Shown: piece by piece, positions 7,113 through 48,749 of the stretch | Numbering within the stretch: the stretch's first letter is position 1 | Layout of the letters: each line of letters begins with the position of its first letter | Assembly: GCA_008638375.1 (NCBI GenBank) | Contig: CM018031.1 | Location: forward strand, 14,810,062 to 14,874,061 | DNA from: Nyssa sinensis | Taxonomy: Eukaryota; Streptophyta; Magnoliopsida; Cornales; Nyssaceae | Direction of reading: 5' to 3' | DNA: 64,000 nt | Program-made: the position numbers and the translations under genes | The notes under the pieces: model-generated | Seen by the model: the letters and a program-made list of their open reading frames with translations, nothing else | Database searches by the model: none | What the model was told of the DNA's origin: nothing

Positions 7113-7202
7113 TTTATACCAATAAAATAAGTAATTATTTTTTATATGAAATATATGTTACCAATATTATATACAAATACAATATTATATTATATTAAAT
7201 AT

Positions 7203-7451
7203 TGTGAAGTTACCAACTCATCTAAAAGCTTAAACTTTTAGATATGGTGTGACTTTATTATTATATTCTCTAACACGCCCTTCTCACTTGTGGCCAGTCT
7301 GAGCCTACACGTGTCAATTGATATTTTCAGGGTGACGGTGAGGTTTGAACTCAGGACCTTTTGCCTGCTCTGATACCATGTGAAGTTACCAACTCATCTA
7401 AAAGCTTAAGTTTTTAGATATAGTGTAACTTTATTATTATATTCTCTAACA
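7203..7451 (-). mobile_element. TRIM (miniature LTR retrotransposon), complete
   Basis: Two 73-bp terminal repeats (7203-7275 and 7379-7451) begin TGTGAAGTTACC and end TCTCTAACA on the plus strand. They flank a 103-bp internal part whose right end, CTGATACCA next to the LTR, is the reverse complement of the tRNA-iMet primer-binding site TGGTATCAG, so the element runs on the minus strand. The 5-bp target duplication AATAT flanks both ends (7198-7202 and 7452-7456). It has no coding capacity, as expected for TRIMs. Relatives lie at 45200-45447 and about 58148-58380. Confidence 0.9.

Positions 7452-10266: not shown

Positions 10267-10323
<57 letters not shown>
10267..10323. repeat. (CT)n microsatellite
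   Basis: About 28 perfect CT units. A shorter CT tract is at 11224-11252 and a GA tract at 12212-12266. Confidence 0.97.

Positions 10324-12211: not shown

Positions 12212-12266
<55 letters not shown>
12212..12266. repeat. (GA)n microsatellite downstream of the protease gene
   Basis: About 27 GA units ending about 110 bases past the stop of the minus-strand NEDD8 protease. It would be a pyrimidine (CT) tract in that gene's 3' transcript. Confidence 0.97.
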
Positions 12267-12373: not shown

Positions 12374-13061
12374 TCACTTGGTGGCCATAAAACTTCTTAT
12401 TAGGCCCAAAATTTTATTACGCATGTCAGCAACAACAGATGGTACTACCTGCTCAGTCACAGCAGAAAACCACAAACCCTCTTCATCTTTGGGTCCACCA
12501 TTTTTGTACCAGCAGCAAATAGCTTCTGCAATGGCTGCAACATACAAACCACAATCATAACCATTCGCTTGCTGCGGGTTACTAGAGCATTCAACATAAC
12601 CGCCATTTGTTGCCTTACTGGAGGTTTCCATATATCCAACAACAGCTTTATAAAGCCGTTTGGCATGCCCCTTATTCATGCCTCCATAACTATCATGATG
12701 CACAAATACATTGGCATCTCTCTCAAATGCAAGTAAACTCCAATGATTCCCACCTTCTGCTTTGGTTACATCACTATTATCATTAACAGGAAATATTACC
12801 AGTTTCTTACCAGGGAAAATTAAGGGGTTGTAGAAAATCTTTGAGGCTCTCAACATCAGGACAGTTTGTTATCCAGAAAGCTATTGAAGGTGGAACTAGT
12901 AAGATATCCTCAGAAGGGTAGCATGAAGTAAGATAACTGAAATAAAACTCAATAATGCGATCGTTGAGAAAATGCGGCCCACTGAGAATGTCGAGATCCG
13001 ACCGTCGAAGTACAACATCATTGTAACTGAGAATCTTCTCGTCTGCTGTTGATTTCCTCAT
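12374..13061 (-). CDS. NEDP1: NEDD8-specific protease 1 (Ulp1/SENP8-like), single frameshift
   Basis: A cysteine protease that matures NEDD8/RUB1 and removes it from targets such as hyper-neddylated cullins, acting in cytosol and nucleus. Two minus-strand frames join to about 228 residues, the usual length of plant DEN1/NEDP1. Frame 1 (13061 to about 12816) has KILSYNDVVLRRSDLDIL and the substrate-binding FLNDRIIEFY. Frame 2 (about 12815-12374) has the triad: His in EGGNHWSLL, Asp in VHHDSYGG, Cys in QQANGYDCGLY. They are offset by one base at the GGG run 12813-12815 (CCC on the coding strand); one base fewer restores the family sequence LNFPGKKLVIF-like. Frame 1 otherwise hits TAA right after LNFPW. 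All other family residues look intact, so this is a recent single-base insertion, an allele or an assembly error. A plausible 3' splice site (TTTTGATTTGTTAG) lies about 26 bases upstream of the ATG, suggesting a 5'-UTR intron. Confidence 0.85.
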
Positions 13062-16000: not shown

Positions 16001-16788
16001 CACCGGTATGTATTATGCCATCAATCAGAACCCTGCAATTTGAGGCATAGTCAATGCCTCTGTTTGATGAGATAGAGACACTGGTCTTCCACTTAGCTCC
16101 TGTTCTATCGTATCACCCTATCCATGATCTAACCCACTCCCAAAAACCAACTAACTACATGACCAGAGGAAAAAATTTCTTCTTGGTCCCCCTCCCCCCA
16201 CCCACCTTTTGGGTGTTCCAGCTGTTGGCGAGTTGGGGGGCTTGACTTGTATGTCACTTTAATTAACCAACTAAACAAGTTTGATAGATTGATGCACTTC
16301 GGAAGTCTAAAACTGAGGTTTAGGCCCCTTCAGTTTAAGATCTTTTTCATCCAGGAGAAAGTGTCCCTAATACCTGAGTCTCGTATTTCTTAAACACTAT
16401 AAATATATATCTTTATAATAACAGTAAGAAAAAAATTCATTTTAATGTTATGAGATCATGTAAACAAAAATAGTAGTTAGTTATGTCTAGGCTATTATAG
16501 CAACATAATGTTCATAATACTGTAATAGGTAGTACAATGTTGTCAGCTCACACTTTACAGCAATGAAATAGTAAGGGGTTTTGTGTCTCTTTGGTTTCAT
16601 TGTTCAGTTTATTGATGGTCTAAAATAGTTTGATCAAGGAATACTGTCAATACTTAATAAAGGTAATTCAAAAGGGCTGCAATCATCTCTTTTGAAGTTC
16701 ATGAATATTTAATCAAGAATTTGCAACTTGTGAAGTTTTGTTTGGTTTGATTATTTTTACTCCCCAGTGTGCATGTTTAAGAAATGAA
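13062..16788. other. Upstream of the protease; no gene recognised
   Basis: 3.7 kb of AT-rich DNA. A 79-codon minus frame at 15484-15723 has a coding-like composition (IEEENKSNVCC, then a TLDVEELFE-like stretch), with further in-phase scraps up to 16050, but I cannot name a family. No transposon ends or RNA genes seen. Confidence 0.4.
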
Positions 16789-16808
16789 GGTTATGTTTGG
16801 TTATCAAC
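16789..16808 (+). repeat. Left outer terminal repeat of the composite element
   Basis: GGTTATGTTTGGTTATCAAC. Its counterpart, read inward from 28622 on the minus strand, is GGTTGCGTTTGGATAATGA. They share GGTT, GTTTGG and TA at matching positions. Both are flanked by GAA on the plus strand. Confidence 0.55.
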
Positions 16809-17405
16809 TGAAAATAAGATTTTCCCTTTTCACTATTTGAAATTGCGTTTGTTTAGTCAACAAAATCTTAAATTTATCTTAAAAGCTGTCAGAATTTTTG
16901 CTGCAATACACTTTTCATTTCCTTTTCATATCTACCCATATCTTCCACACACACAACCCAAGACCCCTTCTTTTCACCCTATGTCTTCTACACCCTAGCC
17001 ATTCATTATGGCTGTGAGAACTTCTTTTGCAGCCATTCGGACAGCAGGAAAACCCAGTGTGGAGCCCAAAAATTCTCTACAACAAGAAGAACCAAACCCT
17101 CATCCACTCAATCAGATTTCAACACTCTGATCCGTTTTTTCTCTGTCTCGCTCTCTCTTCCCTCTCTCTCAACCCAACGACATGTCCTTATGCCGATTTA
17201 TCCTGCAACTTTTCAAACCCTAGCTGTAACAAATCTTGAACTGGATATCTAGGTTCGAACTAGATCTGCACTCTCATCAGAGCAGAATCTCTTCTGCTGC
17301 AAAATATCTTCAGATAGAGTGAAAGACGAGCCAATCCATCCATCAATTGGTTGTTCATCAACAATTAAATTTATAGCTCCACAATAACTTGTGGTGCTCA
17401 CTCCA

Positions 17406-17829
17406 TGCCTTCAACGCATCGCATGATCAGCAAAGGCCGGAAGAGGAAGACGCATTGTCACATAGCCACACTGACGAAAATAGTGTTCCAGTTCCGCCGT
17501 CCCCCTTCAAGAAGGTAACAAAAATCCCAAAACCTTTTTACTATGAGAGTGAACTATTTTGGTGCTGTAGTGGTTTTTTTCCGTCAAATTTTTTGAGATA
17601 ATTTTGTGCAAATGACAGAATCACTCGGTTTTACTGTATTATAATTTTTGTAAATTGTTGTGACTAAATTTACAACTGGATTTCATCTGTTTTCACATTT
17701 TATTTAACCAATCTTTGGATTCTATATGCAAAAAACCCATCATTGTTGTTGACGTATACCATAGGCTGAATTGGATCCAGAATAATTGTTTAAACTTGTT
17801 CACTATGCAGCAACCAAAACCTGCCCCTG
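17406..17829 (+). pseudogene. Leader exons of unknown small ORF, left arm (broken)
   Basis: A start ATGCCTTCAACGCATCGC opens a frame coding MPSTHRMISKGRKRK. In the left arm the frame is then lost by a 16-base deletion relative to the right arm, at the repeat GAAGAGGAAG. The exon ends at a GT donor after CCCTTCAAGAAG near 17515. A TATGCAG acceptor near 17807 leads to a short reading CAACCAAAACCTGCC and a stop. I do not recognise the product; it may be a spliced leader of the transposon mRNA. Confidence 0.35.
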
Positions 17830-20013
17830 CGTCACTGAAATATTGCTACTAATCTCACATTCACACCTCCGTTTGACTGCCGCTTGGGGATTTAGTTGTA
17901 GTTACGTTAATCTTAGTGGGTTGTTGGCTCCACAAGTGACATTGGGGTTACTGATGCTTATGGTTTAAATGATGTTAAGTAGTCCTCATGAATTGGTTGC
18001 AAAAAATATGAATAATCTGTCAACAAATTTCTCTATTACTGTGTTTTAGAAGCCTTGTCAAGGTGCTTGTCGATTGCATAAGTCCTTGTGTTTAGGCATT
18101 TGGATGCACATGCCAACTTATCATAAAATGGTAGTGCAATTTTCGTTTTCTTTCATATCTATGTTCGATCAGCATAAATATAGAGTTTGTCATTGTCGTA
18201 GGTGATAATAAATTCAGTACTATCTCCTGTTTGATCTAAAACAAACTACTGTTTGCTGAATAATACAATTTCATAATTATAATTGTAGTAATTTGAGTTA
18301 AGGAACAAAAGCAAATAACTAAGGCAAAAATTGTACAAGCAAAGTACAGGAATCAATACCAACAACAACCAATAAATTTTATGTGGTTTGGCACTAAGCC
18401 TTGCGCCCATGGACAGTTTGGCAAGAAGATTCTTTGTCAAAAATGGTGTGTTCTTGTCACAGGAATCTAAATTATGGGATTTGACACATCACAAATCTAG
18501 AAACTATTTCAATTCCTGTGATTAATATCTAGCCATTGTTTGGTTTAAGTATAATTTTTTGGTTTAATACCCAATTGTTCTTGACTCTCATGCTATCATA
18601 GACAGTTGACAAATTTACAGGATTTGTATGTACTAGATTCATTACTGTTGTTTGAAATTCAGAAATGTTTGATTACTTTTTCTAAATTAATTTGTAATCA
18701 ATGGGTCTGCTTATTATTAGCAATTGTTGGATTAGCCACTAAATAACAAATTATTTTTTTTGCAAAAAAAACACGAGTTAAGATTAATGCTTATAAGTAA
18801 CTACTTATCACAATAATAATAATAATAATACTTATCAGAAACCAGCTTCATTTGTTGTTTGAATCAGCAATAAGGATTATTGCATTTGGGATTTCTCTCT
18901 CTTGTTCTTTTTGTATATTTTTTTGCAGGCTAGGTGGCCTACCTCAAATTGGAAGTTGATTCTTTGTTGCCTGCAGCTGTAGGTCTATGTTAAGCTTCGC
19001 TATATATCCAATCTTTTTGGTAACAATATTGAAAGGTTACCTACCAAAAAAAAGTTGTCCCGAGTTATATGTTAGTCCCCAAGATTAGAGTGAATCAACT
19101 CACGTTGCCATTTTTCTTCTTTTTTTTTCCCCTTCTTGTTTAATAGAGTGAATACTTTAGTTGCTATTCCTGTGTCTATTTCTTATCCATTTATGAAACA
19201 GCTGCACCTCTAATGGGAAAATCTAACCACTTTTAAGTTTATGTTCATTCTTCTAACAAATTCAATATTTGAGGATCCTCAAAATTTTATGTCATGTAAA
19301 TCCTCTAAATTTTAAGTCATGTAAACTATAGCAAATTTAGTTTGTTGCACCTTGTAATCTACTCATCAACTTCACCACACGGCAGATCTTTGCTGTAGTG
19401 CTTTCCATCGCATTCATTAGGCGCCCCACAGCTTGTGGATATGGCATATTTACCATTTAAAGGTAATTTTCTGGCCAGGATATAGCACTTAGGACAAAAT
19501 TGTTCCTGTGACTCCTCAAAAAATAAGTTAAATTGTTCCTATGACAATTTGGATGCTCTGAAGTCTAATACTGTTATAGAGGTGCTATATCCAGGTTTTC
19601 AATTAACTAACAAGAACTATTAACAAACACTAATCAGTCTTAGTGGGTGGGTTCCCCGGATTGTGCTTTGATTGCGGATTTAAACAGTCAATTCTCCTAT
19701 GATAACATATGAAACCTGTAAGCTTTGTGATTTGAAGGGACAACCCTCATGCACATTCTGGTTGTGTTACTGTCAGATATATGGTGTTTTTACCAGGAAT
19801 ATGGTTTACATGTCGTGGTTGCTTATGCACCCTCACTATTGCCAAACTTGATAATTGTTATGGGCCTATGGCTTTGGTTTTCTACTCTTCTCTCCTCACA
19901 TGCAGTGGATATGCTCATAATCCTTAATATGTTATAAATATCGGTTTATGTCAACTTTACACTAGATATTTATAATAGGGGCAGTAGTAGTTTAATGGCC
20001 ATTTTTTAATTAG

Positions 20014-21086
20014 ATGGCTAAACCAATTGACGATATGGAAGACTCTGTCCACTAGCCACCTAGTGGCAGAAGAGGCCTTTATTACTTTAATGGTTGAACA
20101 AGTCAACCGATCTGCTTTGGTTTCAAACACATTCCCGAAGAGTATTTTTCAAAGATTTGATGACCAATTTTATGAAAAATTGGGCAAAAAATACACGGTC
20201 CCGAAACTGAAATCAAAGTATAACCGACTACGTCTGAAGCACAAGGAGTTTTCCATCCTATTGGGTGAGTCGGGGTTCGGTTGGGATCCTGACACCAACA
20301 CAGTGACTGCAAGTGAGGATGTTTGGCAGAGACATCTTAGGGTATTTTACTCACACCTACTTTATTGTTTCACAACCCATAAGAATAGTTTCCTTACATA
20401 TTGTTTTTATAAAACCTTTGTAGGCACATCCACAAGCACAGCAATTTCGGCGCAAGGGATGTGAATTCTACAGCCTGCTGGGTATTATTTTTAATACCAC
20501 AACTGCGACGGGTGCACTTGCTAGGTCTTGTAGGCAACAACGTCCGACCTCTGATGAAGAGAGGAAAATAGAAGATGCATTCATGGGAGCAGGTGTCCAT
20601 GTCAATGCTGAAACTGTGTTGGTAGATTCCCCTGAGCAGCCCACCTCGAGTAGTAGGAAGCGGAACACGGATGGCTCTTCTTCTTCAAGACCTAGGAAAG
20701 AAAGTAAGAGTAGTAGCATGGAGAAAGCTTTTGAAGCATGGACTTCATTTTCCATTGCTCGAACCAAAAAGATTGAAGGGGAAGGACGTCTTGACACTCG
20801 TAGTAAGACATCTGATCCATACTCTGTAAAGGCATGCATTGAAGTTCTAAGTTGCCTTGACGGTATTTATGATGCTCAGTACATGAAGGCATGTAAGAAG
20901 TTTATCAAGGCTACTTGGCGAATGATGTTTATTCGTGTGCCCCCTAGAAAGGACGTTGAAATGGGTGACGAATCTCTAAAGACGTTGGTTGTTGCTTACG
21001 TGTGGTTGATGGTTCTGTTTTGGTTATGTCTAAAACAATTGCACATGTTATTTCCTATAACTATTTTCTATTATTGTCTTAAGTAG
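20014..21086 (+). pseudogene. Harbinger ORF1 (Myb/SANT-like), left arm
   Basis: PIF/Harbinger elements carry a second, Myb/SANT-like DNA-binding protein needed with the transposase. Exon 1 is 20014-20341, an 82-base intron 20342-20423 has GT-AG ends, and exon 2 is 20424-21086. The Myb_DNA-bind_3-type part reads EAFITLMVEQVN, FDDQFYEKLGKKY, LKSKYNRLRLKHKEF and GFGWDPDTNTVTASEDVW. Exon 2 has FRRKGCEFYSLLGIIFN, a Ser/Arg-rich linker and a C-terminal helical part. The N-terminus from ATG 20014 hits TAG after 13 codons (shared with the other arm) and has two extra bases near 20060. It lacks 24 bases near 21020 that the right arm retains. Downstream starts could still give a shortened protein. Confidence 0.75.
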
Positions 21087-21389
21087 TTGGTACAATGTGA
21101 TATTATGGAATGTAATAGTAACTGTGCTAGACTGTGCATTGGCTAATGTTTTCATAGCACTATTGTACTACTTGATATATTTGAATGTATGCATTATCTA
21201 ATGTTTTTAATTTTATTTTAATTTTTGTCTCTTATATATGCAATCTGATTTGTTACATAGTAATATAATCAAATTTTAAATTTATGTTTCGATTAATAAT
21301 TCTCATTTCTAGACAGGATACGAGCTGAATTATTTGTAATTTTCTTGTTTGCTTCATGCATGTAAGTTTACCAACACCAGTAGCATCCA

Positions 21390-22746
21390 ATGTCAATTGG
21401 TGGAGACACTGATACGGAAATAGAAGAGGAGATGGATGAATTAATGGATGCTTTTATGTTGACTCAGTTGTATACTAGGTCTACTACTATTGGAAAACAA
21501 CCTTATAAGACATCAGCTTTAACCAGGTATGATTACGTGCAAGAGTTACTATTGGGACATCCAACGTGAATATACGAAATGTTTCGCATGGACTCTGAAA
21601 CATTCATGGCCCTTTGTAACACATTAAGGAATGGATTCCTTGATGAAAGTTCACACCGACATGTCCCCATTGAGGAGTCAGTGGCAATTTTCTAACTAAC
21701 ACTATGTCATAGTACTCGACATAGAGTGGTCGCAGAAAGATTTCAACACTCAACTGAAACAATCAACCGCCAATTCAAAGAAGTTTTGAGAGCAATTGCT
21801 AAATTAGGAGTATTCTTAATTCGTCCAAAGCAACCATACGAAAAGGCGCCAGAAATTTTGAACAATCATAAATTTAACCCATATTTTGTGGTATATTTCG
21901 AAAACTTTCATTTAAATTTGATATCTAGTCGTATGCCTAATAAGCACACTGTGGTAGGACTGCATTGGTGCCATAGATGGGATGCACGTGGCTGCATGGG
22001 CACTTGCATCTAAGCAAATAGCATTTCGCAGCCGTAAAACAACAATCACCCAGAATGTTTTGGTTGCATGTTCGTTTGATATGCTTTTTACATTTGTTTA
22101 CACGAGGTGGGAAGGAAGTGCAAATGACTCGCGTGTTTTTTTGAATGCAATAACCCAACAAGACTTGCAATTTCCCCTACCACCTACCGGTAAGAATCTA
22201 AATAGTCAAATATTAGTATACTATGAAATTAATGTTTGTTGTGCACTAACTATGAAAAATTTTTTCACTGTAGGAAAATATTATGTGGTAGATGTTGGGT
22301 TCACAAACGTGGCGGGGTTCTTGGCCCCTTATCGTGGTGAACCATACCATTTGGCTGAATTCCAAGCCAGAGGTCATGGGGCACGGGGTCCGAGAGAACT
22401 GTTCAATCATAGGCATTCATCTTTGCGAAATGTGATTGAGAGATGTTTTGGTGTATTAAAGAAAAAGTTTCCCATCTTTAAGCATATGACCAATTACAAG
22501 GTTGTCCGCCAAGGGCCAGTAGTCATTGCTTGTTGCACAATTCATAACTTCATTCGAATGCATTTCCATGGTGATGACTTCTTCAATGATTTCAACATTG
22601 AGGAAATGTTAGTACCGGATGAAGCTAATCTAAATGGACCACGCCCCAAAGTCGACATGTCCCAAGAACAAGCAAATGCCATGGCCACTTTACGTAATGA
22701 AATAGCTGCCCAAATGTGGTTGGATCATAATATTAATGGACAATGA
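21390..22746 (+). pseudogene. Harbinger DDE transposase (HARBI1-like), left copy
   Basis: Nuclease of the PIF/Harbinger superfamily (DDE_Tnp_4). Exons by hand: 21390-21887, 21958-22189, 22274-22746, with two short GT-AG introns (70 and 84 bases) in phase. The DDE triad is present: Asp in GAIDGMHV (21976-21978), Asp in YVVDVGF (22291-22293), Glu in NVIERCFGVLK (22438-22440). Exon 1 keeps the helix-turn-helix-like region AERFQHSTETINRQFKEVL but has in-frame TGA at 21567 and TAA at 21693. Both also occur in the partial right copy. The C-terminal half is uninterrupted and ends at TGA 22744-22746. It is the only copy in the window with the catalytic region. Not functional as it stands unless read-through or a downstream start is used. 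Confidence 0.85.
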
Positions 22747-23227
22747 AGAGTAAAGTTATGTTACATGTTTAAATTTGTTTAAGGATCACTCTACTTAATG
22801 TAAATGTAATATTTTTAATTTTTGTAATATATGTTAGCTAGCTCCTTTTATTTAAAGACCAAACGTCACTGATGTGTATGCATTTGGACAATATTGCCTA
22901 TACATATAATGTATTTGAAAATTATATCAAACTTCAACAAATCTCTTATCACACATGCAGGTACAATGGAATAACTAATTTGCATTTTAACCTCTTTTTT
23001 TCTTTTTGACAGAACCATAATTAGTTTGGCAAAAGCTCAAAATTATAATATATATTTATAAAATTAACAATTAATTTACCTAAAATTTGCTTATAAAGAC
23101 AAAACTGTTGGAAAAAATTATAAAAAAAAAATTCAAAAAAAAAAATTTATTATATTCAAATGCGTTTTCATATTTTTCAACTCTAAATCTGTTTTAAGAT
23201 TACCACATCCAAACGCATTTTCATAAT

Positions 23228-23251
23228 ATTATACAACTGAGTCAACATAAA
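23228..23251. other. 22-nt templated filler at the inner junction
   Basis: TATACAACTGAGTCAACATAAA at 23230-23251, immediately before the right arm starts, is also found inside the right arm at 23738-23759 and, reverse-complemented, at 21453-21474 in the left arm. It sits exactly where the arm homology ends. Confidence 0.85.
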
Positions 23252-23822
23252 TGCAGTCCTACCACAGTATGCTTATTAGGCATATGACTAGATAATCAAT
23301 TTAAATGAAAGTTTTCGAATATACCACAAAATTATGGGTTAAATTTATGATTGTTCAAAAAGTTCTAGGCGCCCTGTTTCGTATGGTTGCTTTGGACGAA
23401 TTAGAATATCCTATTTAGCAATTGCTCCCAAACTTCTTTGAATTGGCGGTTGATTGTTTCAGTTGAGTGTGAAATCTTTCTGGCGACCACTCTATGGCGA
23501 GTACTAGACATAGTGTTAGTTAGAAATTGCCACTGACTCCTCACTGGGGATGTCTGTGTGAACTTTCATCAAGGAATCCATTCCTTAATGTGTTACAAAG
23601 GGCCATGAATGTTTCAGAGTCCATGCGAAACATTTCGTATATTCACGTTGGATGTCCCAATAGTAACTCTTGCACGTAATCATACCTGGTTAAAGCTGAT
23701 GTCTTATAAGGTTGTTTTCCAATAGTAGTAGACCTAGTATACAACTGAGTCAACATAAAAGCATCCATTAATTCATCCATCTCCTCTTCTATTTCCGTAT
23801 CAGTGTCTCCACCAATTGACAT
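23251..23822 (-). pseudogene. Truncated Harbinger transposase, right arm
   Basis: Inverted copy of transposase exon 1 from the start codon (23820-23822) through the first intron to eight bases into exon 2 (matching GAC TGC AT of the left copy), where the duplication breaks off. It therefore lacks all three catalytic residues. It carries the same nonsense TGA as the left copy, and one T fewer around the second stop, so its frame differs there. Confidence 0.85.
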
Positions 23823-24125
23823 TGGATGCTACTGGTGTTGGTAAACTTACATGCATGAAGCAAACAAGAAAATTACAAATAATTCAGCTCGTATCCTGTC
23901 TAGAAATGAGAATTATTAATCGAAACATAAATTTAAAATTTGATTATATTACTATGTAACAAATCAGATTGCATATATAAGAGACAAAAATTAAAATAAA
24001 ATTAAAAACATTAGATAATGCATACATTCAAATATATCAAGTAGTACAATAGTGCTATGAAAACATTAGCCAATGCACAGTCTAGCACAGTTACTATTAC
24101 ATTCCATAATATCACATTGTACCAA

Positions 24126-25221
24126 CTACTTAAGACAATAATAGAAAATAGTTATAGGAAATAACATGTGCAATTGTTTTAGACATAACCAAAACCGAAC
24201 AGACATAATTTCACCAAACAGAACCATCAACCACACGTAAGCAACAACCAACGTCTTTAGAGATTCGTCACCCATTTCAACGTCCTTTCTAGGGGGCACA
24301 CGAATAAACATCATTCGCCAAGTAGCCTTGATAAACTTCTTACATGCCTTCATGTACTGAGCATCATAAATACCGTCAAGGCAACTTAGAACTTCAATGC
24401 ATGCCTTTACAGAGTATGGATCAGATGTCTTACTACGAGTGTCAAGACGTCCTTCCCCTTCAATCTTTTTGGTTCGAGCAATGGAAAATGAAGTCCATGC
24501 TTCAAAAGCTTTCTCCATGCTACTACTCTTACTTTCTTTCCTAGGTCTTGAAGAAGAAGAGCCATCCGTGTTCCGCTTCCTACTACTCGAGGTGGGCTGC
24601 TCAGGGGAATCTACCAACACAGTTTCAGCATTGACATGGACACCTGCTCCCATGAATGCATCTTCTATTTTCCTCTCTTCATCAGAGGTCGGACGTTGTT
24701 GCCTACAAGACCTAGCAAGTGCACCCGTCGCAGTTGTGGTATTAAAAATAATACCCAGCAGGCTGTAGAATTCACATCCCTTGCGCCGAAATTGCTGTGC
24801 TTGTGGATGTGCCTACAAAGGTTTTATAAAAACAATATGTAAGGAAACTATTCTTATGGGTTGTGAAACAATAAAGTAGGTGTGAGTAAAATACCCTAAG
24901 ATGTCTCTGCCAAACATCCTCACTTGCAGTCACTGTGTTGGTGTCAGGATCCCAACCGAACCCCGACTCACCCAATAGGATGGAAAACTCCTTGTGCTTC
25001 AGACGTAGTCGGTTATACTTTGATTTCAGTTTCGGGACCGTGTATTTTTTGCCCAATTTTTCATAAAATTGGTCATCAAATCTTTGAAAAATACTCTTCG
25101 GGAATGTGTTTGAAACCAAAGCAGATCGGTTGACTTGTTCAACCATTAAAGTAATAAAGGCCTCTTCTGCCACAGGTGGCTAGTGGACAGAGTCTTCCAC
25201 ATCGTCAATTGGTTTAGCCAT
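24126..25221 (-). pseudogene. Harbinger ORF1 (Myb/SANT-like), right arm
   Basis: Inverted copy of the left ORF1: exon 1 25221-24895, intron 24894-24813, exon 2 24812-24126. It keeps the 24 bases deleted in the left arm (reading GEIMSVRF near 24200) and lacks the two-base insertion near the start. From ATG 25221 the reading frame meets TAG after 13 codons and then continues in the same frame as VAEEAFITLMVEQVN, so a single stop separates the start from the rest. It is the better preserved ORF1, 5'-truncated by that stop, and points toward the left ORF1. Confidence 0.75.
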
Positions 25222-26400
25222 CTAATTAAAAAATGGCCATTAAACTACTACTGCCCCTATTATAAATATCTAGTGTAAAGTTGACATAAACCGATATTTA
25301 TAACATATTAAGGATTATGAGCATATCCACTGCATGTGAGGAGAGAAGAGTAGAAAACCAAAGCCATAGGCCCATAACAATTATCAAGTTTGGCAATAGT
25401 GAGGGTGCATAAGCAACCACGACATGTAAACCATATTCCTGGTAAAAACACCATATATCTGACAGTAACACAACCAGAATGTGCATGAGGGTTGTCCCTT
25501 CAAATCACAAAGCTTACAGGTTTCATATGTTATCATAGGAGAATTGACTGTTTAAATCCGCAATCAAAGCACAATCCGGGGAACCCACCCACTAAGACTG
25601 ATTAGTGTTTGTTAATAGTTCTTGTTAGTTAATTGAAAACCTGGATATAGCACCTCTATAACAGTATTAGACTTCAGAGCATCCAAATTGTCATAGAAAC
25701 AATTTAACTTATTTTTTGAGGAGTCACAGGAACAATTTTGTCCTAAGTGCTATATCCTGGCCAGAAAATTACCTTTAAATGGTAAATATGCCATATCCAC
25801 AAGCCGTGGGGGGCCTAATGAATGCGATGGAAAGCACTACAGCAAAGATCTGCTGTGTGGTGAAGTTGATGAGTAGATTACAAGGTGCAACAGACTAAAT
25901 TTGCTATAGTTTACATGAATTAAAATTTAGAGGATTTACATGACATAAAATTTTGAGGATCCTCAAATATTGAATTTGTTAGAAGAATGAACATAAACTT
26001 AAAAGTGGTTAGATTTTCCCATTTGGAGGTGCAGCTGTTTCATAAATGGATAAGAAATAGACACAGGAATAGCAACTAAAGTATTTACTCCATTAAACAA
26101 GAAGGGGAAAAAAAAAAGAAGAAAAATGGCAACGTGAGTTGATTCACTCTAATCTTGGGGACTAACATATAACTCGGGACAACTTTTTTTTGGTAGGTAA
26201 CCTTTCAATATTGTTACCAAAAAGATTGGATATATAGCGAAGCTTAACACAAACCTACAACCGCAGGCAACAAATAATCAACTTCCAATTTGAGGTAGGC
26301 CACCTAGCCTACAAAAAAATATACAAAAAGAACAAGAGAGAGAAATCCCAAATGCAATAATCTTATTGCTGATTCAAACAACAAATGAAGCTGGTTTCTC

Positions 26401-26404
<4 letters not shown>

Positions 26405-26438
<34 letters not shown>
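26405..26438. repeat. (ATT)n microsatellite, expanded in the right arm
   Basis: About 11 ATT units. The matching position in the left arm (about 18814-18830) has about half as many AAT units, so the tract changed length after the arms separated. Confidence 0.85.
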
Positions 26439-26439
<1 letters not shown>

Positions 26440-27699
26440 GTGATAAGTAGTTACTCATAAGCATTAATCTTAACTCGTGTTTTTTTGCAAAAAAAATAAT
26501 TTGTTATTTAGTGGCTAATCCAACAATTGCTAATAATAAGCACACCACTTCATATTGATTACAAATTAATTTAGAAAAAGTAATCAAACATTTCTGAGTT
26601 TCAAACAATAGTAATGAATCTACTACATACAAATCCTGTAAATTTGTCAACTGTCTATGATACCATGGAAGTCAAGAAAAATCAGAACAATTGGGTATTA
26701 AACCAAAAAATTATACTTAAACCAAACAATGGCTAGATATTTAACAAATCACAGGAATTTGAATAGTTCTAGATTTGTGATGTGTCAAATCCCATAATTT
26801 AGATTCCTGTGACAAGAACACACCATTTTTGACAAAGAATCTTCTTGCCAGACTGCCCATGGGCGCAAGGCTTAGTGCCAAACCACATAAAATTTATTGG
26901 CTGTTGTTGGTATTGATTCCTGTACTTTGCTTGTACAATTTTTGCCTTAGTTATTTGCTTTTGTTCCTTAACTCAAATTACTAATTATGAAATTGTATTA
27001 TTCAGCAAACAAAAGTTTGTTTTAGAACAAACAGGAGATAGTACTGAATTTATTATCATCTACGACAATGACAAACTCTATATTTATGCTGATCGAATAT
27101 AAATATGAAAGAAAACGAAAATTGCACTACCATTTTATGATAAGTTGGCATGTGCATCCAAATGCCTAAACACAAGGACTTATGCAATCGACAGCACCTT
27201 GACAAGGCTTCTAAAACACAGTAATAGAGAAATTTGTTGACAGATTATTCATATTTTTTGCAACCAATTCATGAGGACTACTTAACATCATTTAAACCAT
27301 AAGCATCAGTAACCCCAATGTCACTTGTGGAGCCAACAACCCACTAAGATTAACGTAACTACAACTAAATCCCCGAGCGGCAGTCAAACGGAGGTGTGAA
27401 TGTGAGATTAGTAGCAATATTTCAGTGACGCAGGGGCAGGTTTTGGTTGCGCATAGTGAACAGTTTAAACAATTATTCTGGGTCCAGTTCAGCCTATGGT
27501 ATGCGTCAACAACGATGATGGGTTTTTTGCATATAGAATCCAAAGATTGTTAAATAAAATGTGAAAACAGATGAAATCTAGTTGTAAATTTGTCACAACA
27601 ATTTACAAAAATTATATACAGTAAAACCGAGTGATTCTGTCATTTGCACAAAATTATCTCAGAAAATTTGACTAAAAAAATCACTACAGCACCAAAATA

Positions 27700-27865
27700 G
27701 TTCACTTTCATAGTAAAAAGGTTTTGTGATTTTTGTTACCTTCTTGAAGGGGGACGGCGGAACTGGAACACTATTTTCGTCAGTGTGGCTATGTGACGAT
27801 GCGTCTTCCTCTTCTTGTTCCTTCCTCTTCCGGCCTTTGCTAATCATGCGATGCGTTGAAGGCAT
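27700..27865 (-). CDS. Leader exon of unknown small ORF, right arm (open)
   Basis: Right-arm counterpart of the exon at 17406. It is open for about 42 codons, basic then acidic and Ser/Pro-rich: MPSTHRMISKGRKRK, a run of glutamates, then SHSHTDENSVPVPPSPFKK, followed by a GT donor. The basic cluster could act as a nuclear localisation signal (inference). The acceptor in front of the second exon, AG in the left arm, is damaged here (GCGCAACC instead of GCAGCAACC). Function unknown; a host-derived or transposon leader exon are both possible. Confidence 0.35.
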
Positions 27866-28500
27866 GGAGTGAGCACCACAAGTTATTGTGGAGCTATAAA
27901 TTTAATTGTTGATGAACAACCGATTGATAGATGGATTGGCTCTTGTCTTTCACTCTATATGAAGATATTTTGCAGTAGCAGAGATCCGCTCTGATGAGGG
28001 TGCAGATCTGGTTCGAACCTAGATATCCAGTTCAAGATTTGTTACAGCTAGGGTTTGAAAAGTTGCAGGAAATATTGGCATAAGGACATGTCATTGGGTT
28101 GAGAGAGAGGGAAGAGAGAGCGAGACAGAGAAAAAATGGATCAGAGTGTTGAAATCTGATTGAGTGGATGAGGGTTTGGTTCTTCTTGTTGTAGAGAATT
28201 TTTGAGCGCCACACCCATGGCTCCACACTGGGTTTCCTGCTGTCCGTATGGCTGCAAAAGAAGTTCTCACAGCCATAATGAATGGCTAGGGTGTAGAAGA
28301 CATAGGGTGAAAAGAAGGGGTCTTGGGGTGTGTGTGTGTGGAAGATATGGGTAGATATGAAAAGAAAATGAAAAGTGTATTGCAGCAAAAATTCTGACAG
28401 CTTTTAAGATAAATTTAAAATTTTGTTAACTAAACAAACGCAATTTCAAATAGTGAAAAGGGAAAATCTTATTTTTAGTTGATAACCAAATGCAGCCTAA

Positions 28501-28622
28501 ATTCTGATTAGCATAACTAAATACATTTTCACAGTTTTCAAAAAATTAATTACAAAATTTTGAAACACGTTTCAAAAATATTTTTCAAAAAATCATATCT
28601 GAATCATTATCCAAACGCAACC
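28501..28622. repeat. Extra 3'-end-like segment outside the right arm
   Basis: 122 bases with no match in the left arm. It begins after TAA at 28498-28500 and ends TTATCCAAACGCAACC. Its A/T-rich TTTTCAAAA-type motifs resemble the subterminal region before 23221. It could be the 3' end of another Harbinger copy or a small MITE abutting the arm (inference). Confidence 0.5.

Positions 28623-31540: not shown

Positions 31541-31570
<30 letters not shown>
31541..31570. repeat. (AT)n microsatellite
   Basis: AT tract directly left of the foldback element at 31572. A second AT tract (about 32058-32074) lies just right of it, as if the element had inserted into one AT repeat. Confidence 0.9.
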
Positions 31571-31571
<1 letters not shown>

Positions 31572-31579
<8 letters not shown>

Positions 31580-32038
31580 TTACACTGACCTTTCCTAAAG
31601 TTCTGAAAATTATATTGACCTTCCCTATTTTACCTGACAAAGTACAAATACCCCTTTCCAGGCAATTTTACGTTCAAAATGACAAAATTATCCCTTTTAT
31701 GTTTTTTTTATTTTTATATTTTCTCATTTTAGACAATTTTTTCATTTTCAACTAAAATATTGATTTAAACCATTTATTTTTATACAAAATAAAAATAAGT
31801 TATTTACCTTAAATTTTTTTAAAAAATCTTTAAAAGAAGTAAGAAAAAATTGGTCAAAATTGAAAAAAGCAAAAAAAAAAAATTAAGGGGCACTTTTGTC
31901 ATTTTGAAAAAAAAATTGATTGAAAAGGGTATTTGTAATTTTTCAGGTAAAATATGGGGAGTCAGTATAATTTCAAAAATTTTAAGGGAGATCAATATAA
32001 TTGTCAGAAACTTCATGAAAGGTCAATGTAATTTATCT
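31572..32038. mobile_element. Foldback MITE in an AT repeat
   Basis: Long imperfect inverted repeats: the left arm begins TAAATTACACTGACCTTTCC, and the right arm, reverse-complemented, begins TAAATTACATTGACCTTTC. The pairing continues about 150 bases per side (ATTTTACCTGA..ACAAATACCC and TTCAAAATGACAAAA blocks). No coding capacity; superfamily not assigned. Confidence 0.8.
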
Positions 32039-32079
32039 TATATGTGTATGCGTGTACATATATATATATATATAGGTAA

Positions 32080-37360: not shown

Positions 37361-38690
37361 GATTTTTAGTATTTACTCCAGATATTTATGATGAATTCTT
37401 CTAAAGAGAGGAGTTCCCAGATTCTTTTAATTCTATGTTACGGTTACATATTGCCCCTATTGTGGGGGGCTTGGTTTGTTCTGCTTCTTTCTTGATTTGC
37501 TTTTGTCACCCCCGTTTCCTTGAATGGTCAAGTCACTTTCTTCTCTTAAGTTTCAATTTTTATTTTTATTTTTTAAATTGTATTTGCCACATTTTTTACA
37601 AGTGGGATGGAAACTCACCATATGACTTACAGGTTCATGAAACAAAAAAGTAGCCATATATTAGAGATAAGGTATCTGGTCATTCCATTTGAATCAAACT
37701 CTTATTAAATGAAAAGAAGTCTCAAATCCTGACAAGGGGATTAAATATTGTTCTGCTTGTGAAATTTTTAGTAGGGTACATAAAATGGCTCTAAGTAATG
37801 ATGATAGTATTAAATATTTATATGAATATATTTTTAATTGATAAGTTATATCAAATTATTGCTAAGTAAAAGTTTCAAAATTTGTAATAGAAGTTTAAAT
37901 GAGTTAAGTCGAATAATGGTTTAAATTTAATTTGCTTAAAATAAATGTAATTTAAATTATGTTTAATTTTGATTTATTAATTTTTTAAATTAATTTTGAA
38001 CAAGTTTCTAATTGAGTCAATCACGAGCTAAACTTGAGTACTTTGTTTTTTTTTTATATATAGTATTAAACTACTCATTGATTAATCGAACCAAATCTAA
38101 TAAATTAACGAACCCTAAAATAATGGTAGATTCAAAAATTTTAGTTAAAGAGTACAAAATTACTGGTATTAAAATTTAGTAAAGTTTATATAAATATATA
38201 ATTCTAAGAAGAAGACAAGTTCTATTTTATTAAAGTACTCTAAAAAAATTAACGATAAAAAATGCAATATCATTTTTTTGGATTGGGGGAGGAGGGGCAT
38301 GGCCCTCTATTGTCTCCCATAGATCCAAATTTATCTCAAAATATATTTGAATTTGGCTTAATTTTTACTAACTTTCTTTCTTCACTCCTACAAAAACTTG
38401 AATGCTGATTTTCCCTTCAAGAGTAAACAGATATTATCATTGAACCATCGCTCACTTTGACAAGAATTCACTACTATATATAAGAGATTTTAAAAGAATT
38501 TGGAGACCAGAGATCCTTATTATAGAAAAAAAATATAAAAATAAAAAATTAGTTAAAATAGGATATATGATTAGAATAGCCACTTGAGCGATTGGGTAAA
38601 ATAATTTTTAGTTAATTTTAATTAAAATAGAGATAAAATTTATGAAGAGCGCGGTTGGAGATGCTCTTATATAATATTTGGGTTAATTAT
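37361..38690. other. Intergenic, nothing recognised
   Basis: AT-rich sequence with short motif-free frames between the copia pieces and the promoter region of the V-ATPase gene. Confidence 0.5.
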
Positions 38691-39105
38691 ATTTTAATAT
38701 TATGAAGTTTTGTATCGATTTCAAATAAGGTTATCGATTATCAATTGTAATAATTCAATTCCTCAATTTTTAATTTTATTTCAATTGAGATCAATTTTAA
38801 ATGACTGTTTCAAATTCTTAACAGTAACCCTTTACACATTAAAATTATAGAATCTCATTTGAAACTCATATAAAATATAGTCTTATTTGAAACCCATATC
38901 AAATTATATGGTACTATTTTGAAAGTCGTATAAAATTATAAGGTATTAAAATGTGATTAATTTGAGACTGGTCATTAACGATAGTTTGTAATTGGTATTA
39001 ATTGAAATGAAAATAAAAATTTAAAAATTAAATTATTACAATTAATAATCAAAAACTTTATTTAAAATTAAAACAAAATTTTATAATACTGAAGTATAAT
39101 TAACC
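38691..39105. mobile_element. Foldback MITE upstream of the V-ATPase gene
   Basis: Inverted repeats of about 130 bases. The left end reads GGTTAATTATATTTTAATAT; the right end, reverse-complemented, reads GGTTAATTATACTTCAGTAT. Inner blocks pair as well (ATTATCAATTGTAATAATT against ATTATTAATTGTAATAATT). It lies about 670 bases upstream of the start codon. No clear target duplication. Confidence 0.8.
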
Positions 39106-39419
39106 TTAAATATTTTTCAGAATACATTATGAAGTCTTTTGAAAAGTGAAATCTTTTACTAGAAATAATTTTCTTTTTAAAACAAGGCCTTTCTATTTCT
39201 CAATTACTGAGAAATAATTGAAGAATCCAAATGTTGACGCCTGGGAACATTTAGCGTGGAATTTTCGCCTTGGACCGTTAAGACCAGCAAAATGTGTGAC
39301 ATTTAATGCTAGCGATGTGATGGCGTTATTTCATTTAAAAACCTTTTGAAACTAGGTGGGTTCCTAAAATAAAAAATAAATATCGGTGTATCACACTCGG
39401 ACCGCATCTTATCGTCTGC

Positions 39420-39632: not shown

Positions 39633-39679
<47 letters not shown>
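39633..39679. repeat. (GA)n tract in the 5' leader of the V-ATPase gene
   Basis: About 23 GA units ending 94 bases before the start codon, probably within the 5' UTR. Such GA/CT tracts are common near plant promoters and can bind GAGA-binding BPC factors (family knowledge). Confidence 0.9.
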
Positions 39680-39773: not shown

Positions 39774-42700
39774 ATGGAGTTCATAGACAACTTGCCAGCA
39801 ATGGATCTGATGCGCTCGGAGAAGATGACTTTCGTTCAGCTTATCATACCCGTCGAGTCATCCCACCGAGCCATCTCTTACCTCGGCGAATTCGGCCTTC
39901 TCCAATTCCGAGACGTACGTTCCCCACTCGGATCTGTTCTTGTTGTTTCACTATTCTACTTAATATATATACCTATATTTGTATGAGATTTAACGTTCAT
40001 TGATTTTGAATTCCTAAATTTGCTGTTACCTATAAATTTTTTCTAAATTTGATATTGCGTTAAGACCTCTTCACGTGTGCTCTGATAATTAGAAATGATC
40101 GTGGTTGTTTTGAGTTGGTTAGATTTAGTGTTTGGACCTTGATTTGCCATAGGAGAAGAACATAAATTTCATTTATGTGTATGTGTGTGCATGTATATGT
40201 TTGGACCTTGTAATCGCCAATTTGAGCAGAGTAAAATTTCTTACATAAACACACAAGTTGACGAGTCTAGCATAACTTGGATTAAAATTGTGATTAGAAA
40301 TGGTCTGGTTTGTTTTCAGCTGGTTGGATTCAGTGATATGAGCAGAATGCAAATTGTGCAGATCTCATTCACACATCCAATCGCGCACATTTTTGGACCT
40401 TGATTTTTTTACATGAGCACAGATTTCTCACGCTCAAGCACCCTATTAAGTAGGGTATAACTTGCAATGTTTTTTTAACCGGATCAATTTGTGAATCCAA
40501 TGTTCAGGCTATAAATGTGGAATTTAGTATTTTCTGGTAGGTTAAGGGAGGAGGGAGATAGGTGGTTACTGATTACCTGTTTTTGTGATTTGTGCTGAGA
40601 AATCTTGGGAAATTTCTTTAAATTGAACTTAATTACTTTTTACATTGATATATCAAAATTTGATTTTTGGATATATACAAGAATGGCTCGCATCCCACCC
40701 AACATGCACGCGTTTATGCTTGTGAGTGTGATTATGTGAGTGCTCGCTTGCTTGTTTGAATGCAAATAGCAGCATTACCTCATGAATTTAATTAGTTGAT
40801 TCTTCGAAAAAATTTATCTTAATATTCTGTAATGGACAGTGCTTGGTTCCAAATTAGGTAAAAAGAATCTCCTCCTACCCGCGTACGTGTCACAATTATA
40901 ATGTGCCACATATGCAATTGCATGTATATCATGTGACTATTTAGTTTTAACAAAAAAATAAAAATTAAATAAAATTACAAAGCACAAGTGCATTGCATAC
41001 GTGGCAGATTTTAGTTGTGACACGTACATGGGTAGGAAGAACCTCTTCCTACCTGGTTCGGAGCTAAGCATTGTCCTTTTGTAATTGATTGAATTTCTCG
41101 ACTAGAAAAATTTCCAAATTAATTAATGGATCCCTGGTCATTTTCTTTGGTAGCTTAAAAGGCCTTAGACAGAGGGATCATGTTTATTCCCTCTTCATTA
41201 TTGGGATGTAGCCATCGATCGAAAAAAAAAAATTGGGATGTTGGTGTTTAGCATCTCTTATCAACTTATGATACCTTGTCTTCTGTAGGATGGGGGATGA
41301 GAAGTTGAGTTGCTTGAGGCGTATCTTACGAGTTTTGGGGTAGTCTCAAGGCGTAAGGTGGATCTTGGCATAAGTGAATTGATTTCGGTTGGAGAAGTAG
41401 AGGAGATGGATAAGCTAGCATCTGTCTTGGGTTGCAAGGTTGGCTCTCTACCCATATCTTATTTGGGATTGCTGTTGGGTTTCTATATTATAGGTAAAGT
41501 AGTCTATAGCTTTGTTGTTGAATTGTTTGAGAGGAGGTTAGCAGATTGGAAGAGATAACAATATGTTTCAAAGTAAGAAGACAAGCTCACTATCATTAAG
41601 AGCACTCATTTGAGCCTTTTGACATATTTTATGTCTACTTTTTCTATTACAGTTTTAGTGGGAAAAAAAGACTTGAGAAACTCCCACAAACTTTTTACGA
41701 GGGTCTTGGAAATGAGTTCAGTATTATTTTTTGAAGTGGGGTATGGTTTACTCACCTTTTAAAGACACGAGATTGGATGTTACAAAGATTTGATCATTCA
41801 ACCGACTTTGCTAGGAAAATGTTTGTGGAGGATGGCTGAAGATAGGTACAGTTTGTGGGAAAGGCCCATTGGAAAATTTCCTTTTTGGATTTGTTTAGAA
41901 TTGCATTGGATGAAGAGGCTCTTGTATCTGAGGTTTTCAAAGGGTGGGGTTGTTTCAAAACCTTGTTTTGGTAAAGCATGGCAAGATTGGGAGATGGAGG
42001 TGATGGAGGCTCTTTTGGTGTTTTGCATGCTTGCACTTTAGATGGGTGTGGAGGATTCTTTATGTTTGATGCCTTGGAGTTGGAGCTGTAGAATTTGTTC
42101 TCTTTTGGGATTTGTGATAGAATTAGAAAAAATCTTTGGATCTGTAGAATTTGAATTGGTTGGAATTGAATTTGGGTTAGCTTGATTGCAATTCAAACAA
42201 ATTCCAAGGCCCCAATTATACAGTGCCAAACATAACATTAACGATAATCATCTGTGCATGCTGTAGATTGCTTGTGTTGCTAGGTTTTTCTTGAGATTTG
42301 GCTTTGAAACTTCTCAATGAACAAATAGATAGTATTAGGAACTAGAATTTTGTAATTTAAGACAAGATTGAGTTGTAAGTTTTTGCCATCTAGTATTTTG
42401 GAGAAGTATTATAAAATATGTTTGGGATTTAATTTATCTTTTTGCCATAAAATTTTGTTATATTTAAAGATGGTTAGTTTATTGCAGAGCTAAAGGGGGA
42501 AAAAGATTTCTCCCCCCTGCCTGCTTACTTTTTAGTTATTAATCAGATGCACTCACTACTATTTTTTTTTTCTTGGCAGTTAAATGCTGATAAAAGCCCT
42601 TTCCAACGAACATTTGTTAATCAGGTATTTATTGATCAGAACTGCACTTTCATACTGAATGCCTTTCATGATATCTTTTTTGACTTTGGGTTGTAATATC

Positions 42701-48715: not shown

Positions 48716-48749
<34 letters not shown>

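What the first reader, a model, noticed from the sequence alone, without database searches (positions are those of the whole stretch)
16789..28622. Harbinger transposon as an 11.8-kb inverted duplication: a candidate hairpin-RNA silencing locus
Seen: two arms of about 5.2 kb in opposite orientation (16789-21965 and 23251-28497) around a 1.3-kb spacer, each with the element's 5' terminus outward and an ORF1 gene reading toward the centre. Known: in maize, Mu killer, an inverted duplication of part of MuDR, makes hairpin RNA that silences MuDR. Inference: transcription from either outer 5' end through the spacer would fold into a very long hairpin covering ORF1 and the N-terminal transposase, a possible trans-acting silencer of active Harbinger relatives in this genome.
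Basis: partly seen in the sequence, partly recalled or inferred. Interest (0 to 1): 0.88.

Follow-up and report, generated by a model that had tools for sequence, protein, structure and literature searches.

The report
Inverted pair of dead Harbinger transposons
In what is very probably the Chinese tupelo tree genome, two broken copies of one jumping gene lie tail to tail, joined by what looks like a repair scar; they could in principle make a silencing hairpin RNA like maize's Mu killer, but nothing yet shows that they do.

Summary
The inverted duplication is in the sequence: 16796-21966 against 28490-23250, 96.0% over 5272 columns. It is the last fifth (second transposase exon and 3' end) of a near-complete left copy; the right copy is cut off in the transposase. 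They meet at one junction holding a 22-nt insertion (23230-23251) identical to sequence about 500 bp away in the right arm, also in the left arm: probably a break-repair scar.

Identity is stepped: outer 2.75 kb with 2.4% substitutions, core 19538-21656 with 2 substitutions in 2118, and the last 300 bp of the right arm indel-rich with its frame lost, perhaps poor consensus.

Both copies are broken. Contig lengths place the window on a 65.17-Mb Nyssa sinensis chromosome. Six ORF1 relatives (61-82%) are annotated there, but no Nyssa transposase is among the 120 listed of 504 hits. C/T differences are in excess at CG/CHG sites, as expected of methylated transposons.

Verdict: most likely ordinary rearranged transposon debris with Mu killer-like geometry, in another superfamily. 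Hairpin silencing is possible and untested; no RNA data were available.

The parts
16789..21966 (+). Left arm: 5' end, ORF1 gene and start of the transposase of the near-complete left copy
   Evidence: BLASTN 96.0% to the right arm; event counts
23252..28497 (-). Right arm: second copy, cut off at about the start of transposase exon 2 (exon boundary inferred)
   Evidence: breakpoint ambiguous by a few bases
21967..23229 (+). 'Spacer': left copy's own transposase exon 2 (ORF 21982-22746, DDE_Tnp_4) and 3' end, with a TGCGTTTGG terminal-like motif at 23209-23217 (-)
   Evidence: Pfam PF13359 E 4.9e-19; tblastn of 12 relatives; motif. No second copy of this stretch in the window
23230..23251 (-). 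22-nt filler at the junction: exact copy of the sequence at 21453-21474 (+) and 23738-23759 (-)
   Evidence: only 2 of 5000 random 60-bp windows outside the locus share even a 16-mer with the arm
19539..21656 (+). Near-identical core, left side
   Evidence: 19538-21656: 2 substitutions in 2118 aligned; change point 19539, 2-lnL interval 19431-19615
23556..25696 (-). Near-identical core, right side; carries 24 bp that the left lacks (24196-24219)
23252..23555 (-). Right-arm stretch rich in one-base indels, frame lost; possible low-quality consensus
   Evidence: 17 indels (16 of one base) and 7 substitutions in 299 aligned with gap-friendly scores, 14 and 11 with stricter scores; Fisher p 2.9e-4 against the outer arm for the first; tblastn
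17405..17520 (+). Left ORF1 exon 1, 16 bp shorter than the right copy and out of frame
27722..27865 (-). Right ORF1 exon 1, in frame
   Evidence: 79% to Nyssa protein P0244 over 48 aa
20027..20464 (+). Left ORF1 Myb/SANT exon
   Evidence: PF12776 E 2e-17
24772..25173 (-). Right ORF1 Myb/SANT exon
   Evidence: same ORF in the right arm
20583..21086 (+). Left ORF1 C-terminal part
   Evidence: 74-82% to 4 Nyssa sinensis proteins
24126..24653 (-). Right ORF1 C-terminal part
21402..21890 (+). Left transposase exon 1 (approximate ends), two in-frame stops at 21567 and 21693
   Evidence: the first stop is also in the right arm at 23645
16786..16809 (+). Left outer end: GAA then terminal GGTTATGTTTGGTTATCAACT
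28477..28500 (-). Right outer end: terminal GGCTGCATTTGGTTATCAACT (read on minus), then TAA on plus, a possible target duplicate

Best explanation
The locus is a rearranged, dead pair of PIF/Harbinger-like copies: a near-complete left copy (16789 to about 23229) and a right copy (28497 to 23252) that lacks its 3' part, in opposite orientation, tail to tail. Shown: the layout, the single junction with a 22-nt insertion identical to sequence in the arms, the stepped identity, and broken coding frames in both copies. Inferred: a double-strand break near the left copy's 3' end was repaired by copying from the other arm and microhomology joining, which left both the filler and the near-identical core; the pair is now methylated heterochromatin. 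It probably has no dedicated function. If it is transcribed at all, the likeliest double-stranded RNA comes from the right-hand 5' end, because that copy has lost its own 3' end and would read on through the antisense of the left copy.
For: Inverted match. Filler 23230-23251 identical to 21453-21474 and 23738-23759. Core: 2 substitutions in 2118 against 66 in 2727 in the outer part; a span of 2227 bp with at most 2 substitutions against a maximum of 1233 in 20000 uniform placements; change point 19539, LR 75.9. The core covers exons, introns and the ORF1-transposase gap, so selection on protein does not explain it. Broken: stops at 21567 and 21693, the first shared by the right arm; left ORF1 exon 1 out of frame; right copy lacks exon 2. 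Methylation-type decay: of 48 C/T-type differences in the outer arms, 10 in CG (3.5 expected), 16 in CHG (7.3) and 22 in CHH (37.2), 24 losses in each arm. The right copy's 3' remainder is not in the window.
Against: The step in identity could also come from an assembler merging the arms, although the 24-bp indel inside the core argues against full merging. The outer triplets (GAA left, TAA right) and the fact that the arms are much closer to each other than to the annotated Nyssa ORF1 relatives (at most 82%; 88.5% over a 61-aa piece) fit a single inverted duplication of one insertion at least as well as two insertions. The CG/CHG excess has no control from elsewhere in this genome. The substitution rate of the inner 299 bp (7, 2.3%) matches the outer rate, so that stretch may be truly old rather than noisy, and its indel count depends on the alignment scores (14 instead of 17 with stricter ones). 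Nothing excludes transcription.
Confidence: 0.6

Rival explanations
1. A Mu killer-like hairpin locus: a transcript through both arms folds into a 5.2-kb hairpin, Dicer-like enzymes cut it into siRNAs, and these silence related Harbinger copies in trans.
For: Same layout as Mu killer (PMC3440606, abstract and introduction), with a longer stem: Mu killer's is given as 2.4 kb perfect (PMC2563033 passage) or proposed as about 4 kb (PMC3440606 abstract). 4453 of 5284 columns in perfect runs of at least 24. Related ORF1 sequences exist elsewhere in the genome: 6 annotated Nyssa proteins. The truncated right copy has lost its own 3' end.
Against: No RNA evidence at all. No Nyssa transposase among the 120 listed of 504 hits, identity at most 52%. 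ORF1 relatives are 61-82% identical in the matched parts. Perfect hairpin transgenes become methylated and silence themselves (PMC9263138 abstract), and the arms show methylation-type decay. A left transcript should stop before the right arm (inference). Even for Mu killer, sense read-through transcripts went with failure to silence (PMC3440606 abstract).
Confidence: 0.18
2. Assembly artefact: the join at 23230-23251 is false, and two separate copies, or one copy, were fused by the assembler.
For: The 300 bp beside the join on the right carry 17 indels in 299 aligned bases, 16 of one base (Fisher p 2.9e-4; 14 indels with stricter scores), a pattern expected of noisy long reads (general knowledge). 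The published N. sinensis assembly is from PacBio Sequel reads with FALCON, Quiver and Pilon (PMC6877568 passages). A near-identical core is what arm merging would leave.
Against: The outer flanks differ and the outer arms differ by 66 substitutions in 2727, 48 of them transitions, so this is no simple read fold-back. The 22-nt filler looks like a repair scar. Subread N50 14.5 kb at 99x can span the 11.7-kb locus.
Confidence: 0.17
3. A variant of the best explanation, not exclusive of it: a single Harbinger insertion was duplicated in inverted orientation, so the whole 11.7 kb is one composite with a 5' terminal repeat at each end, and later gene conversion evened out the core.
For: Outer triplets GAA/TAA agree at 2 of 3 bases. 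The arms are much closer to each other than to the other annotated family members. Equal C loss in both arms (24 and 24).
Against: It needs a separate later conversion event. A 2-of-3 agreement is weak because Tourist MITEs of this superfamily have TTA/TAA duplications anyway (PMC10004981 passage).
Confidence: 0.35

Closest known systems
Mu killer (Muk), maize MuDR inverted duplication
   Same: Same element end outward on both sides; two partial transposase copies ending in an inverted duplication (PMC3440606: abstract and sections 3 and 12 seen). Attempts to span its centre by PCR failed, and the centre is the doubtful part here too.
   Different: Muk is a Mutator element with a genetic silencing effect and siRNAs reported (PMC2563033 passages). 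Here the element is PIF/Harbinger-like, the loop is 1.3 kb of the left copy, the arms are mismatched in their outer half, and no RNA or effect is known.
Tpd1 hairpin, Teosinte Pollen Drive
   Same: Long natural plant hairpin locus; 22-nt siRNAs acting in trans (PMC11390486 abstract and passages).
   Different: It targets a lipase gene and kills pollen; no such target was looked for here.
PIF/Harbinger elements with ALP1/HARBI1-like transposase
   Same: DDE_Tnp_4 transposase and Myb/SANT ORF1; the 120 listed transposase relatives carry PF13359, and those with a name are from plants.
   Different: Here two copies are fused in inverted orientation and both are broken.

Membership tests
PIF/Harbinger superfamily | DDE_Tnp_4 transposase | tested here: met
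   PF13359 E 4.9e-19 in 21982-22746; 504 homologues, 120 listed
PIF/Harbinger superfamily | Separate Myb/SANT ORF1 | tested here: met
   PF12776 E 2e-17
PIF/Harbinger superfamily | Terminal inverted repeats at 5' and 3' ends | tested here: inconclusive
   5' ends alike in both copies; at the left 3' end only a TGCGTTTGG motif at 23209-23217 (-) and a weak alignment
PIF/Harbinger superfamily | 3-bp TTA/TAA target duplication | tested here: inconclusive
   TAA beside the right end, GAA beside the left; no 3' flank was recognised for either copy
Mu killer-like silencing locus | Inverted duplication of part of a transposon with the same end outward on both sides | tested here: met
Mu killer-like silencing locus | Transcript through both arms | not testable with these tools
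   no RNA data
Mu killer-like silencing locus | siRNAs from the arms | not testable with these tools
   no small-RNA data
Mu killer-like silencing locus | Intact, closely matching element to silence | tested here: inconclusive
   transposase relatives at most 52%, none from Nyssa among the 120 listed of 504, candidates limited to 0.55-1.75 times the query's length; 6 Nyssa ORF1 relatives, 61-82% in the matched parts; own genome not searchable

The most novel reading that the evidence does not exclude
A natural hairpin-RNA silencer of a PIF/Harbinger family, formed by one recent break-repair event that both joined two copies tail to tail and made a near-perfect 2.1-2.4-kb stem over ORF1 and the transposase start; because a 5' terminal repeat faces outward at each end, the silencer might itself be movable by Harbinger transposase.
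Probability: 0.1. Interest if true: 0.65.

Novelty: new member of a known kind. Interest (0 to 1): 0.33.

Why it matters
If it makes siRNAs, it would be a natural Mu killer-type trigger outside Mutator, in a tree, with its formation scar still readable, so that how plants first come to recognise a new transposon could be tested on a second case. If not, it is a clean example of how break repair can turn transposon pairs into long inverted repeats, and a warning that geometry alone does not make a silencer.

Tried and rejected
Rejected: chance similarity (score 8496 against 299 for the next pair). Nested insertion of one copy into the other with both halves kept: the right copy's missing 3' part is not elsewhere in the window (blastn; tblastn of the 120 transposase relatives, 1 of 266 matches outside the locus, a 28-residue one at E 0.004). 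My first tblastn for this (240 proteins) left out 12-16 kb as well as the locus, so one search replaces it. Protein-level selection as the cause of the identical core: the core also covers introns and the gap between genes. A terminator argument from AATAAA: in the spacer it occurs twice on minus (23151, 22852) and not on plus, against 1.6 and 1.7 expected by base content, so nothing follows from it. Flanks: joined, they match nothing else in the window but one 58-bp stretch at 76%; seven peptides from the flanks and elsewhere gave no Pfam match above the curated cut-off, two of them weak ones below it; so the empty site could not be shown. Pfam on the three pieces of left transposase exon 1 gave nothing. 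Rfam at gathering thresholds: no match; no tRNA.

Literature: in the lists (9 of 9 papers; 20 of 135; 20 of 29; 11 of 11; 2 of 2; 12 of 371; 2 of 2; 12 of 28; 6 of 6) and 60 (10 of 80,983) no title or abstract start reports a PIF/Harbinger inverted-duplication silencer. The lists are partial and the library holds only some papers, so this is no proof of absence from print.
Full report
What is there. The window holds one dominant inverted repeat: 16796-21966 matches 28490-23250 on the other strand at 95.98% over 5272 columns. At the outer ends the similarity starts within the element's terminal sequence, GGTTATGTTTGGTTATCAACT on the left and GGCTGCATTTGGTTATCAACT on the right; beyond it the flanks differ. 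TTTGGTTATCAAC occurs only at these two places in the window. GAA lies next to the left end and TAA next to the right end.

What it encodes. Reading inward, each arm has ORF1 and the start of a transposase. ORF1 has a Myb/SANT domain (PF12776, E 2e-17), and the left copy goes on into a DDE_Tnp_4 exon (PF13359, E 4.9e-19) at 21982-22746. By protein match ORF1 begins far outside that domain: Nyssa protein P0244 matches an exon at 17405-17520 on the left and 27722-27865 on the right; the left one is 16 bp shorter and out of frame, the right one in frame. In tblastn with 12 of the 240 proteins then held, the left copy keeps exon 1 and exon 2 each in one frame for 12 of 12; in the right arm the first frame ends at 23550-23586 for 12 of 12, and 5 of 12 pick up again in another frame. 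Left exon 1 has in-frame stops at 21567 and 21693, and the first is also in the right arm at 23645. Neither copy can make the whole transposase as it stands.

What the spacer is. 21967-23229 is the left copy's own remainder, transposase exon 2 and 3' end, and has no second copy in the window. So the locus is one near-complete copy of about 6.4 kb and one copy without its 3' part, with a single new junction. At that junction 22 nt (23230-23251) are an exact copy of 21453-21474 in the left arm and 23738-23759 in the right arm, in the right arm's own orientation. As a yardstick, 2 of 5000 random 60-bp windows outside the locus share even a 16-mer with the arm. Templated filler of this kind is a known sign of end joining after a double-strand break (recalled; of PMC11724301, on templated insertions in yeast, I saw the listing and abstract start).

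How alike the arms are. Outer 16789-19537: 66 substitutions (48 transitions) and 27 indels in 2727 aligned bases. Core 19538-21656: 2 substitutions and 2 indels (one of them 24 bp) in 2118. Inner 21657-21966: 7 substitutions and 17 indels, 16 of one base, in 299. With stricter gap scores the counts are 71 and 24, 2 and 2, 11 and 14. The best change point is 19539 (LR 75.9); 20000 uniform placements gave no span with at most 2 substitutions longer than 1233 bp, against 2227 observed. The core covers exons, introns and the gap between genes, so it points to gene conversion or copying repair, or to merging by the assembler; the 24-bp difference inside it speaks against complete merging. The inner stretch differs from the outer arm in its indel share (Fisher p 2.9e-4 on the counts) and only the right arm loses its frame there. 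I read it as probably poor consensus, but its substitution rate is like that of the outer arm, so real old divergence is not excluded.

Where it is. The NEDD8-protease-like exon at 12374-12856 is 82% identical to Davidia involucrata, and the window's own protein is listed on a contig of 65,168,417 bases. An ORF1 relative annotated as Nyssa sinensis lies on a contig of exactly that length. The window is therefore very probably Nyssa sinensis. Its published assembly used PacBio Sequel subreads (N50 14.5 kb, 99x), FALCON, two Quiver rounds and Pilon (PMC6877568, passages only).

Relatives. The transposase exon finds 504 proteins; of the 120 listed the best score has 51% identity, the highest identity is 52%, and none is from Nyssa. 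ORF1 finds 6 proteins, all named Nyssa sinensis: 4 at 74-82%, one at 65%, one at 61% over 35% of the query. The first four are 91-94% alike among themselves, so the window's copies form a separate branch. The family spread in this genome. This is weak evidence against a close active target, because gene models of masked repeats are often missing (general knowledge).

State of the DNA. Of 48 C/T-type differences in the outer arms, 10 lie in CG (3.5 expected), 16 in CHG (7.3) and 22 in CHH (37.2), with 24 losses in each arm. This fits long methylation of both arms, as in ordinary silent transposons; I had no control from elsewhere in the genome.

How it most likely works. Most likely it does nothing in particular. 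Two copies, or one copy and its inverted duplicate, were joined by break repair and partly evened out; both are broken and probably methylated. If transcribed, the right-hand 5' end is the likelier source of double-stranded RNA, since the right copy has no 3' end of its own (inference). A 5.2-kb stem with 4453 of 5284 columns in perfect runs of at least 24 nt would be a Dicer-like substrate by general knowledge. In transgenes perfect hairpins become methylated and silence themselves (PMC9263138 abstract), which would work against lasting expression.

Comparison. Mu killer has two TIRA ends outward and two partial mudrA copies meeting in an inverted duplication (PMC3440606); it is reported to make a 2.4-kb perfect hairpin RNA and to act in trans (PMC2563033 passages), though a later study could not amplify across its centre and found sense read-through transcripts in plants that failed to silence (PMC3440606). 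The geometry here is the same, the superfamily differs, and the functional features could not be tested. It would work like Mu killer only if transcribed, and membership in that kind is unproven.

Scores. Observation confirmed; interpretation partly supported. Interest 0.33: tidy anatomy and a testable idea, but ordinary unless RNA data show otherwise.

Noticed in passing
40831-41079: A 250-bp imperfect palindrome; 40881-41030 folds as RNA far better than its shuffles (z -9.3, 0 of 200 as good). Looks like a MITE-type hairpin.
   Followed up: partly
31541-32073 and 38673-39114: Two longer self-inverse stretches at 66% and 69% identity; the tested central parts fold weakly (z -2.7 for 31735-31880) or no better than shuffles (z +0.7 for 38840-38989).
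   Followed up: partly
12374-12856 (-): Exon of a NEDD8-specific protease 1-like gene, 82% to Davidia involucrata, the best named match.
   Followed up: partly
7202-7451, 45199-45447, 58147-58377: Three related copies of a ~230-250-bp sequence (70-87% identical), each with a ~70-bp direct repeat at its two ends.
   Followed up: no
10268-10323, 12212-12266, 39633-39679: Three long perfect TC/GA dinucleotide arrays.
   Followed up: no
48717-48747: Run of 31 C in a 34% GC window.
   Followed up: no
24196-24219: 24 bp present in the right arm only, inside the otherwise near-identical core, bounded by a GTTT direct repeat: either a deletion on the left or an insertion on the right after the arms were evened out.
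   Followed up: partly
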